From Sphingobacteriales bacterium (lineage in GTDB: Bacteria; Bacteroidota; Bacteroidia; Sphingobacteriales; Sphingobacteriaceae), in NCBI GenBank assembly GCA_004293485.1, contig RDYW01000034.1, forward strand, positions 1 through 64,000: a DNA stretch of 64,000 nucleotides, given 5' to 3'. Below the pieces are notes generated by a model that was not told where the DNA came from, did no database searches, and was given only the letters and a program-made list of their open reading frames with translations. The stretch's first letter is position 1; every line of letters starts with the position of its first letter. Shown here piece by piece: positions 36,040 to 51,179 of this stretch. The translations under genes were made by a program, and so were the position numbers.

Positions 36040-36321
36040 ATGCTAGGCGAAAAATTAAAAGAATTACGAGAGGCTAAAGGACTTGTGCAAAGACAAGTTG
36101 CTGCTGACTTACATGTTGACACTGCTTACATCAGCAAGATGGAGCATAACGAAAAGCCTGTGAGTAGAACTCACTTAAAAAAGTTAGCTAAACTTTATAG
36201 TGTAACTGAAAATGATTTGTTGCCAATTTGGTTAGCGGACAAAGTTTTGCAATTAGTAGAAAATGAAAAGTATTCAGTTCAAGCATTGGAAATGGCTTTA
36301 AATAAAGTAAAAGAGAAGTGA
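36040..36321 (+). CDS. XRE-family transcriptional regulator (controller-like)
   Basis: 93-residue helix-turn-helix protein: LGEKLKELREAKGLVQRQVA, ADLHVDTAYISKMEHNEKPV, LKKLAKLYSVTENDLLPIWL. Residues about 5-60 are a canonical XRE/Cro-type HTH. Size and first position in a restriction-like operon match controller (C) proteins. A symmetric operator overlaps the promoter. Its stop and the next start share GTGA, so it is translationally coupled to the helicase gene. Confidence 0.85.
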   Translation: MLGEKLKELREAKGLVQRQVAADLHVDTAYISKMEHNEKPVSRTHLKKLAKLYSVTENDLLPIWLADKVLQLVENEKYSVQALEMALNKVKEK

Positions 36322-39167
36322 CCGAATTAACTCCATATCAGGCAAAATACATTGCTTACGAATTAACCAGACGCTTTCCTTCGGGAAGTAGCGAAAAGTT
36401 TAACGTAGCCTTGATGGATGCTCAGGTTGATTTAAATCCGCATCAAGTGGAAGCGGCTCTTTTTGCTTTTAAATCTCCACTTTCTAAAGGAGCAATTCTT
36501 GCAGACGAAGTTGGCTTAGGCAAAACGATTGAAGCAGGGATTTTACTTTCGCAACTTTGGGCTGAACGCAGAAAAAAATTATTAATCATTTGTCCTGCCA
36601 ATTTAAGAAAGCAATGGAGTCAAGAATTGTTGGATAAATTCTTTCTTGAATCAACCATATTAGAAAACAAGAATTTTAAAGACTTCAAAAAGTCTGGAAA
36701 TAAAAACCCTTTCGAGCAAAACAAAATTGTTATCTGCTCTTATCAGTTTGCAAGAGCAAAAGCGGAATTAATGCAATTGGTTTCTTGGGATTTGGCTGTA
36801 ATTGATGAAGCCCATCGCTTACGCAATGTTTACAAGCCAACCAACAAAATTGGTAACGCAATTAAACAAGCCTTATCACATTCAAGAAAAGCATTGCTAA
36901 CTGCAACTCCACTTCAAAACTCATTGCTTGAATTGTATGGTTTAGTGAGTATCATTGATGAACATACTTTTGGCGACATCAAAAGTTTTAGAAGCCAATT
37001 TCTAAGAACGGTTGACGGAGAAAATTATCAGGATTTACGGGACAGACTAAAGTCAGTTTGTATTAGAAATCTTCGCAGACAAGTTCAAGAATACATTCGT
37101 TATACAAATAGACTTCCGCTTACCATAAAGTTTGAACCATCAGACGATGAACAAAAACTGTATGAAGATGTAAGCGATTATTTGCAAAGGGAATTACTTT
37201 ATGCTTTGCCCGCAGGGCAAAGGCATTTAATGACTTTGATTTTGCGTAAACTTTTGGCATCATCTTCATTTGCTATTGCCGGAACATTAAACAGTTTGAT
37301 TAAAAAACTTAAAGAAGTAAAAATTAAAAATGAAGAATTAAAAATTAATTCCGAATTAGCCGAAGATTATGAATTATTTGAAGAACAAGCAGAGGAATGG
37401 GAAGAAGAAAACACAGAAGATAAAAAACTTACTGAACTTGACTTTGAATCCATTCGGAAAGAAATTGTTGAACTGGAAAAATATCGGGACTTAGCCGAAT
37501 CTATTAAACACAATACGAAAGGCGATAAGCTTTTAACGGCATTGAAAGAAGGCTTTGCTAAAATGGATAAGCAAGCCAATCAAAAGGCAATCATATTCAC
37601 AGAATCAACAAGAACTCAAAACTATCTATTCAATTTATTAAGCGAACACTACCCAAATAAAATTGTATTGTTCAATGGTTCCAATACGGATGAAACTTCT
37701 AATAAAGTTTACAAAAGTTGGCTCAGCCAAAATAAAGGAACAGATAAAGTAACTGGTTCGCCAAGTGCTGATAAACGAGCTGCATTGGTAGAATATTTTA
37801 GAAACGAAGCAACCATCATGATTGCCACCGAAGCTGCTGCTGAAGGTATCAATTTGCAGTTTTGCTCTTTGCTAATTAATTATGATTTGCCTTGGAATCC
37901 ACAACGGATTGAACAGCGTATTGGACGTTGCCACCGTTACGGACAAAAGTTTGATGTAGTAGTTGTAAATTTCCTAAACGTAAAAAATGCGGCTGACATT
38001 CGGGTGTTTCAATTGCTCGATGAAAAGTTTAAATTATTCAGTGGCGTTTTTGGAGCAAGTGACGATGTATTGGGAAGCATTGAATCAGGCGTTGATTTTG
38101 AAAAACGCATTGCGGAAATCTATCAGAAATACAGAAGTGAAAAAGAAATTATTGATCAGTTTGATTTGCTTCAAAAGGAATTAGATGAGCAGATTAGTAG
38201 TAAAATGCTTTCTACAAGGGAAACGCTATTGGCGAATTTTGATGACGAAGTATTGGATAAACTAAAAATCAGACTTTCTGAAAGCAAGGAATACATAAAC
38301 AAATACGAACAATGGCTTTGGGCTGTTACCAAATTTGAATTGAACGGAACTGCAAAATTCAACGACAAGGATTTGAGTTTTCAACTCAAAAAACAACCTT
38401 ACCCAAATGCAAACTTCCCAACAGAATCGTTTAAACTCGGAAAGCCAAATACCGAAGCCCATGTTTATAGAATGGGGCATCCATTGGCACAAACTGTATT
38501 AGAAAAGGTAAAAGAAAAGCAATTGCAACCTGCTTGCTTGACTTTTGATTTATCGGGTTACAAAGGTAATGTGGCCATTTTGGATGAATTGAAAGGAGAG
38601 CAAGGTTGGTTAAGTGTGATGGCTGTGAGTGTTGATTCTTTTGAATCATCCGATTATCTGATGGCTTATGGAATTGCCAATAATGGAATAACGCTAACAG
38701 AAGACCAGGCAAAACGATTGCTCACCTTACCTGCAAAAAATGCTACTCAAGATTCAAATACAATTGATGAATCCTTGGTAATGAAATCAGGTGAAACCTA
38801 TTTAGATGCATTGCTCAAAACCTTATCAGAAAGAGATAATAACTATTTGAAATTTGAAACAGAGAAGCTAACCAAATGGGCCGAGGATAGAATGAATGCC
38901 GCTGAATTGGCCATTAAAGAAACCAAAGCCAAAATAAAAGAACTAAACCGTGAAGCACAGAAAACAGTTGACCCATCGGCTCAACTAAAAATACAAGAAC
39001 AATTGCAGGACGAATCAAAAAAACAAAAAAAGCAACGACAAGAAATCTTTATTGTGGAAGATGAAATTGCAGAAATGAGAGACAAGATGATTAGCGATAT
39101 TCAAAAACGAATGAAACAGGAAATAAGCAAGACCCATTTATTTACGATTAACTGGAAATTAGTATAA
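36318..39167 (+). CDS. SNF2-type helicase/translocase
   Basis: 949 residues, GTG start in the GTGA overlap with the XRE gene. Helicase motifs: ILADEVGLGKTIEAGILLSQ (Walker A about residues 66-70), LLIICPANLRKQW, LAVIDEAHRLRN, ALLTATPLQNSLLELYGLVS, and motifs V-VI as IATEAAAEGINLQFCSLLIN YDLPWNPQRIEQRIGRCHRYGQ. This is the RapA/HepA-like branch also represented by DrmD of class 1 DISARM. The C-terminal 350 residues are helical and charged, with no domain recognised. Likely an ATP-driven double-strand DNA translocase within the defence operon; role inferred from neighbours. Confidence 0.9.
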   Translation: MTELTPYQAKYIAYELTRRFPSGSSEKFNVALMDAQVDLNPHQVEAALFAFKSPLSKGAILADEVGLGKTIEAGILLSQLWAERRKKLLIICPANLRKQWSQELLDKFFLESTILENKNFKDFKKSGNKNPFEQNKIVICSYQFARAKAELMQLVSWDLAVIDEAHRLRNVYKPTNKIGNAIKQALSHSRKALLTATPLQNSLLELYGLVSIIDEHTFGDIKSFRSQFLRTVDGENYQDLRDRLKSVCIRNLRRQVQEYIRYTNRLPLTIKFEPSDDEQKLYEDVSDYLQRELLYALPAGQRHLMTLILRKLLASSSFAIAGTLNSLIKKLKEVKIKNEELKINSELAEDYELFEEQAEEWEEENTEDKKLTELDFESIRKEIVELEKYRDLAESIKHNTKGDKLLTALKEGFAKMDKQANQKAIIFTESTRTQNYLFNLLSEHYPNKIVLFNGSNTDETSNKVYKSWLSQNKGTDKVTGSPSADKRAALVEYFRNEATIMIATEAAAEGINLQFCSLLINYDLPWNPQRIEQRIGRCHRYGQKFDVVVVNFLNVKNAADIRVFQLLDEKFKLFSGVFGASDDVLGSIESGVDFEKRIAEIYQKYRSEKEIIDQFDLLQKELDEQISSKMLSTRETLLANFDDEVLDKLKIRLSESKEYINKYEQWLWAVTKFELNGTAKFNDKDLSFQLKKQPYPNANFPTESFKLGKPNTEAHVYRMGHPLAQTVLEKVKEKQLQPACLTFDLSGYKGNVAILDELKGEQGWLSVMAVSVDSFESSDYLMAYGIANNGITLTEDQAKRLLTLPAKNATQDSNTIDESLVMKSGETYLDALLKTLSERDNNYLKFETEKLTKWAEDRMNAAELAIKETKAKIKELNREAQKTVDPSAQLKIQEQLQDESKKQKKQRQEIFIVEDEIAEMRDKMISDIQKRMKQEISKTHLFTINWKLV

Positions 39168-51000: not shown

Positions 51001-51179
51001 TAAACGACCCAAATATTGAACTAAATTCATTCATCATTTCAAATACACCTTACAACCAATTAACACATTGGAAAGGTCAAGAAAGCATGGAGGACTTTAA
51101 TTCAAATCACATCTTGTTCCAAAAAGAGCAACGACAATTTTATATTCAAATAATCATTGACAAACAAATAAAGCAATAG
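48015..51179 (+). CDS. type III Res-like DEAD/DEAH helicase-nuclease
   Basis: 1054 residues, starting 8 bases before the previous stop. Helicase core: [20 protein letters not shown] (Walker A, residues 156-162), [40 protein letters not shown] (DEGH, 259-262), [13 protein letters not shown] (SAT), and [20 protein letters not shown] plus [13 protein letters not shown] for motifs V-VI. Near the C-terminus [23 protein letters not shown] gives a PD-(D)xK site (PD 949-950, D967, K969), the nuclease motif of type III Res subunits. With the beta-class methyltransferase it makes a complete Mod-Res pair, although four other genes lie between the two. Confidence 0.9.
   Translation: [1054 protein letters not shown]

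What the first reader, a model, noticed from the sequence alone, without database searches (positions are those of the whole stretch)
36040..51179. Composite SNF2 / DUF1016 / giant methyltransferase / ATPase-TOPRIM / TrlF / Res defence operon
Eight co-directional genes overlap or abut over 15 kb: XRE, SNF2 helicase, DUF1016 nuclease, 1013-residue beta-class methyltransferase, OLD-like ATPase, DUF4276, PHP-ATPase, Res-like helicase-nuclease. The sequence shows a Mod-like and a Res-like subunit, as in type III restriction-modification, but with a SNF2 helicase as in class 1 DISARM and four extra genes between them. From memory, the Hma (helicase-methyltransferase-ATPase) system also has a related core. 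I do not know a described system with exactly this set. An inferred model is host methylation plus two translocases and two nucleases, with a nested ATPase-TOPRIM effector pair guarding the system.
Basis: partly seen in the sequence, partly recalled or inferred. Interest (0 to 1): 0.82.

Follow-up and report, generated by a model that had tools for sequence, protein, structure and literature searches.

The report
Restriction operon carrying swappable defence genes
This stretch encodes a phage-defence operon built on a type III-like DNA restriction-modification enzyme with an extra DNA motor; unrelated ready-made defence genes sit inside it, as in many relatives, so the eight genes are a widespread base system with interchangeable passengers rather than one new machine.

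Summary
A tight + strand operon (36040-51179) encodes XRE, SNF2/DrmD-like helicase, DUF1016 nuclease, a 1013-aa type III-like Mod, OLD-like ATPase, DUF4276, TrlF-like PHP-ATPase and a Res helicase-nuclease. One correction: the TrlF gene is cut by an in-frame TAA (47561-47563), so there are nine ORFs.

It is not one eight-gene system. In 77 distinct relatives from about 15 phyla, every large Mod with enough downstream contig has this Res after it (69), and 53 have SNF2 before it. Eighteen loci are bare SNF2-Mod-Res; about 30 carry cargo, almost always co-directional, in the Mod/Res or SNF2/Mod gap. The cargo differs: HEC-01 pairs, DUF1016, GmrSD, AlbA/Schlafen, RhuM, Septu-like ATPases. None has the window's set. 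The closest relative (Flavobacterium) shares SNF2 (86%) and Res (81%) but has different cargo and a different Mod recognition domain.

Best reading: a helicase-assisted type III-like R-M chassis carrying three embedded modules (DUF1016, HEC-01, a broken TrlF). PADLOC already models all these parts except the fixed helicase-Mod-Res arrangement, for which I found no description in the papers searched. Anti-phage function is inferred, not shown.

The parts
35999..36021 (+). Bacteroidota-type -7 promoter-like box TATATTTG (35999-36006) overlapping a 7-bp dyad TTGTCCT-TTGT-AGGACAA (36004-36021), possible operator for the XRE protein
   Evidence: Read from sequence; a 6-bp dyad appears in 12% of shuffles of this 485-nt gap, so this is only a lead; the -33/-7 pattern search over the window found nothing above chance and did not list this site
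36040..36321 (+). XRE/HTH_3 small regulator, probable controller of the operon
   Evidence: PF01381 E 2.9e-11, PF13560 E 2.5e-11; overlaps SNF2 by 4 nt; relatives often have a different small HTH or none there
36318..39167 (+). SNF2/RapA-like helicase, DrmD-related; chassis gene 1
   Evidence: PADLOC DrmD PDLC02619 684 bits; NCBIfam DrmD_b 690 bits, below its cut-off of 950; helicase motifs invariant in 48 relatives
39168..40385 (+). DUF1016/YhcG PD-(D/E)XK nuclease, cargo in the SNF2/Mod gap
   Evidence: PF06250 194 bits, PF17761 112 bits; PADLOC PDC-S02 437 bits; found in the Mod/Res gap of 5 other loci
40372..43413 (+). Large type III-like Mod, 1013 aa, beta-class amino-methyltransferase; chassis gene 2. 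DPPY at 41881-41892, FAGS at 42664-42675
   Evidence: PADLOC MTase_III PDLC03646 750 bits; PDB 6k0w Mod E 2.3e-56 and EcoP15I Mod E 1.3e-33; model pTM 0.82 with Z 31.3 to 6k0w and 30.0 to 4zcf; DPP invariant in 75 of 75
41989..42606 (+). Variable stretch of Mod (about residues 540-745), probable target recognition domain
   Evidence: 22-30% identity to Flavobacterium L031 in residues 551-750, against 88-98% over most of 1-400 (except 51-100 and 201-250) and 801-900
43425..44528 (+). HEC-01A: OLD/AbiEii-like AAA ATPase, cargo in the Mod/Res gap
   Evidence: PADLOC HEC-01A 415 bits (AriA 103, mad3 99); AAA_21 105 bits
44525..45208 (+). HEC-01B: DUF4276 protein, predicted TOPRIM-like effector partner
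   Evidence: PADLOC HEC-01B 234 bits; PF14103 157 bits; 18 of 19 relatives lie beside a HEC-01A gene
45212..47563 (+). TrlF-like PHP + ABC/SMC-type ATPase, N-terminal part, ended by an in-frame TAA (47561-47563)
   Evidence: NF045780 322 bits over profile positions 2-721 of 944; stop read; intact homologues run through
47564..48022 (+). C-terminal part of the same TrlF-like gene, same frame
   Evidence: NF045780 225 bits over positions 810-944; in frame with the preceding ORF
48015..51179 (+). Type III-like Res: SF2 helicase plus C-terminal PD-(D/E)XK motif (PD...DPK at 50859-50921); chassis gene 3
   Evidence: PADLOC REase_III PDLC03654 697 bits; PF04851; helicase motifs and P949-D950...D967-P968-K969 conserved in 60 relatives; model pLDDT 85.6, helicase part Z about 14-16 to SF2 enzymes

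Best explanation
A restriction-modification chassis of type III-like design, with a fixed accessory SNF2 helicase, carries three unrelated embedded defence modules in one transcription unit. Inferred working of the chassis: Mod recognises an asymmetric sequence through its central variable domain and methylates host DNA. Res, in complex with Mod, uses ATP to move or slide from unmethylated sites and cuts invading DNA with its PD-(D/E)XK domain. The SNF2 motor is proposed to translocate on, remodel or clear DNA for restriction. Inferred working of the cargo: DUF1016 is an additional nuclease. The HEC-01 pair works PARIS-like, with the OLD-like ATPase as sensor and DUF4276 as effector, and acts when the first layer is inhibited or bypassed. 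TrlF would be a third such module but is interrupted here. XRE would delay expression on entry into a new host. Shown: families, motifs, order, conservation of the chassis and turnover of the cargo. Not shown: any activity, the methylated site, phage resistance, or cooperation between layers.
For: All 69 large-Mod relatives with enough downstream contig have this Res next downstream on the same strand; 53 of 77 have SNF2 upstream; 18 are bare SNF2-Mod-Res. Gaps without cargo are operon-like: median 15 nt SNF2-Mod and 3 nt Mod-Res. Cargo ORFs in the two gaps are almost all co-directional (66 + against about 5 -). Cargo families differ: HEC-01, DUF1016, GmrSD, AlbA/Schlafen, RhuM, PtuA-like ATPase, PLD, kinase, PIN. 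Presence of Mod/Res cargo on the Mod tree changes 20 times, against 22.5 for shuffled labels (55 of 300 as low), i.e. as good as random. Flavobacterium L031 has SNF2 86% and Res 81% identical but different cargo in both gaps. Complete plasmids show the minimal HTH-SNF2-Mod-Res form in E. coli/Klebsiella and HTH-SNF2-Mod-ATPase-DUF4276-Res in Aeromonas. IMG/VR contigs also show bare SNF2-Mod-Res. Mod fold and sequence match solved type III Mods. Res has a conserved helicase plus PD-(D/E)XK. DUF4276 occurs in 37 of 385 phylum genomes, beside HEC-01A in 18 of 19 tested loci and beside Mod in 1. Res occurs in only 1 of 41 genomes of the window's family although the flanking genes are found in 35 and 29, indicating acquisition.
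Against: SNF2 is absent upstream in 15 loci with ample sequence, and in at least two of those (and two plasmids) a UvrD-PD-(D/E)XK enzyme sits there instead, so its necessity is unproven. The Res nuclease domain was not recovered by fold search, and no PDB sequence match to Res was found. The relatives were found through Mod, so the sample is not random. PARIS-like action of HEC-01 is analogy only. The broken TrlF and a REP-like insert in Mod could mean decay.
Confidence: 0.74

Rival explanations
1. One integrated eight-gene defence system: all genes act in one pathway, with the ATPase-DUF4276 pair as built-in guard.
For: Tight co-directional packing with overlaps in a single transcription unit.
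Against: No other locus has the set; cargo is swapped between near-identical chassis and changes at random on the Mod tree; the TrlF member is interrupted.
Confidence: 0.06
2. An ordinary two-gene type III R-M whose SNF2 neighbour is just one more independent passenger, not part of the machine.
For: PADLOC files Mod and Res as plain type III; SNF2 is missing, replaced or placed after Res in some loci.
Against: SNF2 is next upstream of Mod in 53 of 77 loci over about 15 phyla with a 15-nt median gap, far more constant than any other neighbour except Res, and is retained where cargo differs; when replaced, it is by another helicase.
Confidence: 0.16
3. A decaying, inactive island: the TrlF stop, the REP-like insert in Mod and repeats in DUF1016 show loss of function.
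For: In-frame TAA in TrlF; GC-rich REP-like sequence read in frame in Mod near 40980-41015; repeat in the DUF1016 linker.
Against: All other ORFs are full length with catalytic motifs intact; the Mod insert keeps the frame and sits at a tolerant site; the TAA could be an assembly or strain-level error in a draft genome.
Confidence: 0.1

Closest known systems
Type III restriction-modification (EcoP15I, Mod2Res1; PDB 4zcf; PMC4490356)
   Same: Beta-class Mod of the same fold with central variable region, followed by a Res with SF2 helicase and C-terminal PD-(D/E)XK motif; Mod then Res on one strand
   Different: Mod is 1013 aa (about 370-400 aa longer, mainly at the N-terminus); a SNF2 helicase gene precedes Mod; four cargo genes lie in or beside the pair
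HEC-01 (Hma-embedded candidate, PADLOC; Payne et al. 2024 preprint, cited in PMC12988326)
   Same: HEC-01A ATPase plus HEC-01B DUF4276, adjacent, embedded inside a methylase-based system
   Different: Embedded in a type III-like chassis here, not in Hma
DISARM class 1 (DrmD)
   Same: SNF2 helicase most similar to DrmD among PADLOC models; an adenine-type methyltransferase in the operon
   Different: No DrmA, DrmB or DrmC; methyltransferase is type III Mod, not PglX-like; DrmD score below NCBIfam's cut-off
Hma / DUF499-centred BREX-related systems (PMC8565338, PMC12839542)
   Same: Helicase + methyltransferase core that hosts embedded defence genes
   Different: No DUF499 ATPase in the genome; methyltransferase and nuclease are type III
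T1RM with embedded TgvAB in V. cholerae VPI-2 (PMC11411939)
   Same: Independent defence genes (there GmrSD-like, also seen as cargo in our relatives) inside an R-M operon, shown to work as a separate complementary layer
   Different: Type I chassis, other cargo
PARIS (AriA/AriB; PMC12409363)
   Same: OLD-like ATPase sensor gene followed by a separate TOPRIM effector gene
   Different: HEC-01A scores 103 bits to AriA but 415 to HEC-01A; DUF4276 replaces AriB; triggers unknown
ARMADA (PMC12458937)
   Same: RapA/Snf2-type helicase plus N6-methyltransferase in a multi-helicase array

Membership tests
Type III R-M | Mod: beta-class amino-MTase with DPPY upstream of motif I and a TRD between | tested here: met
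   DPP 75/75 and FxGS motif conserved; 6k0w/4zcf/7dsu sequence matches and Z 29.5-31.3
Type III R-M | Res: SF2 helicase motor plus C-terminal PD-(D/E)XK nuclease | tested here: met
   Walker A, DEGH, SAT, QxxGRxxR and P949-D950...D967-P-K969 conserved in 60 relatives; helicase fold matched
Type III R-M | Res homologous by sequence or fold to EcoP15I Res (including the nuclease domain) | tested here: inconclusive
   No PDB sequence match for Res or its profile; structure rows cover only residues 11-640
Type III R-M | Mod and Res genes adjacent on one strand | tested here: inconclusive
   Adjacent in bare relatives (18 loci with SNF2; plasmids); separated by cargo in the window
Type III R-M | ATP-dependent cleavage needing two inversely oriented sites; hemimethylation of an asymmetric site | not testable with these tools
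   Needs biochemistry and long-read methylation data
HEC-01 | Adjacent HEC-01A ATPase and HEC-01B DUF4276 | tested here: met
   415 and 234 bits, ATGA overlap
HEC-01 | Embedded in Hma (origin of the name) | tested here: not met
   No DUF499 in the genome
DISARM class 1 | DrmD SNF2 helicase | tested here: inconclusive
   PADLOC DrmD 684 bits but NCBIfam DrmD_b 690 under its cut-off of 950
DISARM class 1 | Core DrmA-DrmB-DrmC | tested here: not met
   None among the ten operon proteins; MZB/DUF1998 absent from the genome
Hma / DUF499 BR system | DUF499 ATPase (HmaC) | tested here: not met
   PF04465 0 matches in the genome, control rings in Thermotoga
ARMADA | YprA-like helicase with MZB/DUF1998 region | tested here: not met
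   No such protein in the operon; MZB absent
TrlF family ATPase | Intact PHP + AAA-like ATPase above the family cut-off | tested here: not met
   322 bits (N part) and 225 bits (C part), each under the cut-off of 350, split by TAA
PARIS | AriA with AriB effector | tested here: not met
   AriA 103 bits, outscored by HEC-01A; no AriB match, effector is DUF4276

The most novel reading that the evidence does not exclude
Helicase-Mod-Res is a distinct, undescribed subtype of type III restriction. An obligate accessory motor (SNF2 in most lineages, a UvrD-PD-(D/E)XK helicase-nuclease in others) works with an enlarged Mod. The Mod/Res gap is a dedicated slot where back-up modules are swapped in under the same controller, some of them triggered when phage anti-restriction blocks the chassis.
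Probability: 0.35. Interest if true: 0.62.

Novelty: new variant of a known kind. Interest (0 to 1): 0.45.

Why it matters
If the reading is right, a widespread type III-like chassis has a third, helicase subunit, and its interior is a fixed hunting ground for embedded defence genes, as Hma and type I R-M are. Closely related chassis with different cargo (window and Flavobacterium aurantiibacter) and natural forms with none or one cargo (E. coli IncF plasmid, Aeromonas plasmid) make two questions testable: whether the SNF2 motor is needed for type III restriction, and whether embedded pairs such as HEC-01 guard the host system or simply ride along.

Tried and rejected
1) Full match to one known system: PADLOC, NCBIfam and Pfam split the operon into type III R-M, DrmD-like helicase, PDC-S02, HEC-01 and TrlF/Ppl-like pieces. 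2) DISARM, Hma and ARMADA membership: rejected on missing core parts. 3) Programmed readthrough or a split TrlF by design: no support, since the 900-1000 aa open frames of close relatives run through; re-initiation at the TTG just after the stop is not excluded. 4) 'HEC-01A without DUF4276' in L035, L062, L065, L067: an artefact of my greedy gene picking; tblastn finds DUF4276 there. Gap-based counts replace the ORF-based ones. 5) An XRE-like gene as a constant chassis part: homologues of the window's or two plasmid HTHs lie upstream of SNF2 in only 3 of 49 loci. 6) Empty-site search: flanking genes exist in 35 and 29 of 41 family genomes but on different contigs, so no clean empty site. 7) Promoter patterns: at chance level. 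8) PDB sequence searches for DUF4276, DUF1016, TrlF and Res found nothing; TOPRIM for DUF4276 therefore rests on general knowledge. Conserved acidic residues (E19, E23, D93, E143, E145 in 15 of 15) fit a metal site. 9) VIA fold rows did not cover Res 641-1054, so its nuclease fold is unconfirmed. 10) The preprint on embedded defences (10.1101/2024.01.29.577857) is not held here, so whether it already lists this chassis could not be checked.
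Full report
What is there. The window is contig 69 of a 2.2-Mb, 89-contig draft genome. Ten ORFs from 36040 to 51533 were translated and scanned; the last one, 51183-51533, matches nothing and is probably spurious. The rest form one + strand run with overlaps or gaps of at most 11 nt. 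The calls are XRE; SNF2 helicase (DrmD-like); DUF1016/YhcG nuclease (PADLOC PDC-S02); 1013-aa Mod (MTase_III); HEC-01A ATPase; HEC-01B DUF4276; a TrlF-like PHP-ATPase; Res (REase_III). The TrlF-like gene is interrupted: a TAA at 47561-47563 splits it in frame into the PHP/Walker-A part and the signature/Walker-B part. Intact homologues in other genomes are single ORFs of about 900-1000 aa through that point. A sequencing or assembly error is possible, since this is a draft genome.

Is it one system? I collected relatives of the large Mod: 80 loci with up to 10 kb on each side from named genomes, 22 IMG/VR contigs and annotated plasmids. I then mapped the window's nine proteins on them. After removing one duplicate and measuring gaps in nucleotides, 77 genome loci remain. 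Res follows Mod in all 69 that have enough downstream contig; the 8 without Res run into a contig end. SNF2 precedes Mod in 53. Of 48 loci with all three, 18 are bare, 20 have extra DNA only between Mod and Res, 3 only between SNF2 and Mod, and 7 in both gaps. Intervening ORFs are almost all co-directional (66 + against about 5 -). The loci span Bacteroidota, Bacillota, Pseudomonadota, Planctomycetota, Spirochaetota, Campylobacterota, Chlorobiota, Chloroflexota, Verrucomicrobiota, Acidobacteriota, Thermodesulfobacteriota, Cloacimonadota, Patescibacteria, an archaeon and others.

What the cargo is. Pfam and PADLOC scans of 61 intervening proteins give OLD/PtuA/HEC-01-type ATPases, DUF4276, DUF1016, GmrSD, AlbA/Schlafen, RhuM, a PLD-like protein, a kinase, PIN and others: mostly families already tied to defence. 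HEC-01 pairs recur in seven distinct genome loci (L035, L060, L062, L065, L067, L093, L104) and on an Aeromonas plasmid. No locus repeats the window's combination. On a Mod tree built without the recognition region, presence of Mod/Res cargo changes 20 times, against 22.5 for shuffled labels (55 of 300 shuffles as low). Cargo therefore turns over about as fast as this tree can resolve. SNF2 presence is somewhat clustered (11 changes against 13.7; 3 of 200 shuffles as low).

The closest relative is the most telling. Flavobacterium aurantiibacter (L031) has SNF2 86%, Mod 62% and Res 81% identical, but DUF1016 is replaced by a PtuA-like ATPase plus an unknown, and HEC-01/TrlF by a 648-aa ATPase. 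Within Mod, most of residues 1-400 and all of 801-900 are 88-98% identical (two low stretches: 51-100 at 36% and 201-250 at 58%), while 551-750 is 22-30%. Recognition domain and cargo were both exchanged while the chassis stayed. Res was found in only 1 of 41 genomes of the window's family, although the flanking genes are found in 35 and 29 of them, which fits acquisition by transfer. Complete conjugative plasmids carry the minimal HTH-SNF2-Mod-Res form. It is rare in E. coli: 2 of 5,426 complete genomes.

The chassis proteins. Mod matches solved type III Mods by sequence (6k0w E 2.3e-56, EcoP15I E 1.3e-33) and by fold (model pTM 0.82, Z 31.3 and 30.0). It is an enlarged type III Mod. Res has all SF2 helicase motifs and a C-terminal PD...(D/E)-P-(K/H) signature in 60 relatives. 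Its model is confident and the helicase half matches SF2 enzymes; the nuclease half was not tested by fold. SNF2 is closest to DrmD and RapA, with motifs invariant in 48 relatives. An unexpected point: in some loci the gene before Mod is instead a UvrD-PD-(D/E)XK helicase-nuclease (L080, L091, plasmids L163 and L167, viral contig L194), and in one plasmid SNF2 follows Res. Together these suggest a helicase slot rather than a fixed protein.

How it most likely works (inferred). XRE controls expression. Mod marks host DNA. Mod-Res attacks unmarked DNA by ATP-driven movement and cleavage, as in EcoP15I (PMC4490356, PMC11142916). The SNF2 motor assists, perhaps by clearing proteins or moving the complex. 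Cargo modules are further layers. For HEC-01 the nearest worked example is PARIS, where an OLD-like ATPase senses an anti-restriction protein and frees a TOPRIM nuclease (PMC12409363). Complementary layers embedded in an R-M operon have been demonstrated for TgvAB in a type I system (PMC11411939). Steps shown here are gene content, motifs, conservation and turnover; every functional step is inference.

What it is relative to the known. It is not DISARM, Hma or ARMADA: defining parts are missing. Mod and Res are filed as type III by PADLOC, and HEC-01 and PDC-S02 are already catalogued as candidates found by the embedding approach (PMC12988326). New here, as far as the papers I could search show, are the conserved helicase-Mod-Res unit and its use as a cargo slot. 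I rate it a new variant of a known kind, of moderate interest.

Noticed in passing
L080 6428-9142, L091 2068-4800, L163 4057-6999, L167 4253-7036, L194 4166-6898: The gene before the large Mod is a UvrD helicase fused to a PD-(D/E)XK nuclease instead of SNF2: a replacement of one accessory motor by another from a different superfamily.
   Followed up: partly
window 40975-41018: GC-rich REP-like sequence (CCCTCTCCTACAGGGGAGGGTCGGGGTGGGG) read in frame inside Mod as SPSPTGEGRGG, at a site that is variable in relatives.
   Followed up: no
window 39549-39635: Two 33-nt direct repeats (88% identical) in the linker between the two DUF1016 domains, coding for ITQQPVAxIQ twice.
   Followed up: no
G006:C11:182398-185540 and G296:C22:58988-62234: In two other Bacteroidota genomes a DUF4276 gene lies about 1.7 kb after an ordinary-length type III Mod, so HEC-01 probably embeds in standard type III operons too.
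   Followed up: partly
L073 3762-11674, L084 4870-10865: Loci with two large Mod genes on one strand before a single Res, possibly two specificities sharing one Res.
   Followed up: no
L056 16370-21196: A 1609-aa DEAD + UvrD double helicase directly follows Res in a Mod-Res locus without SNF2.
   Followed up: no
L162 (Hymenobacter swuensis plasmid pHsw1): SNF2-...-Mod-Res locus with a 1210-aa RecD-like helicase (AAA_30/UvrD_C_2) between SNF2 and Mod and a 1673-aa AAA protein after Res.
   Followed up: no
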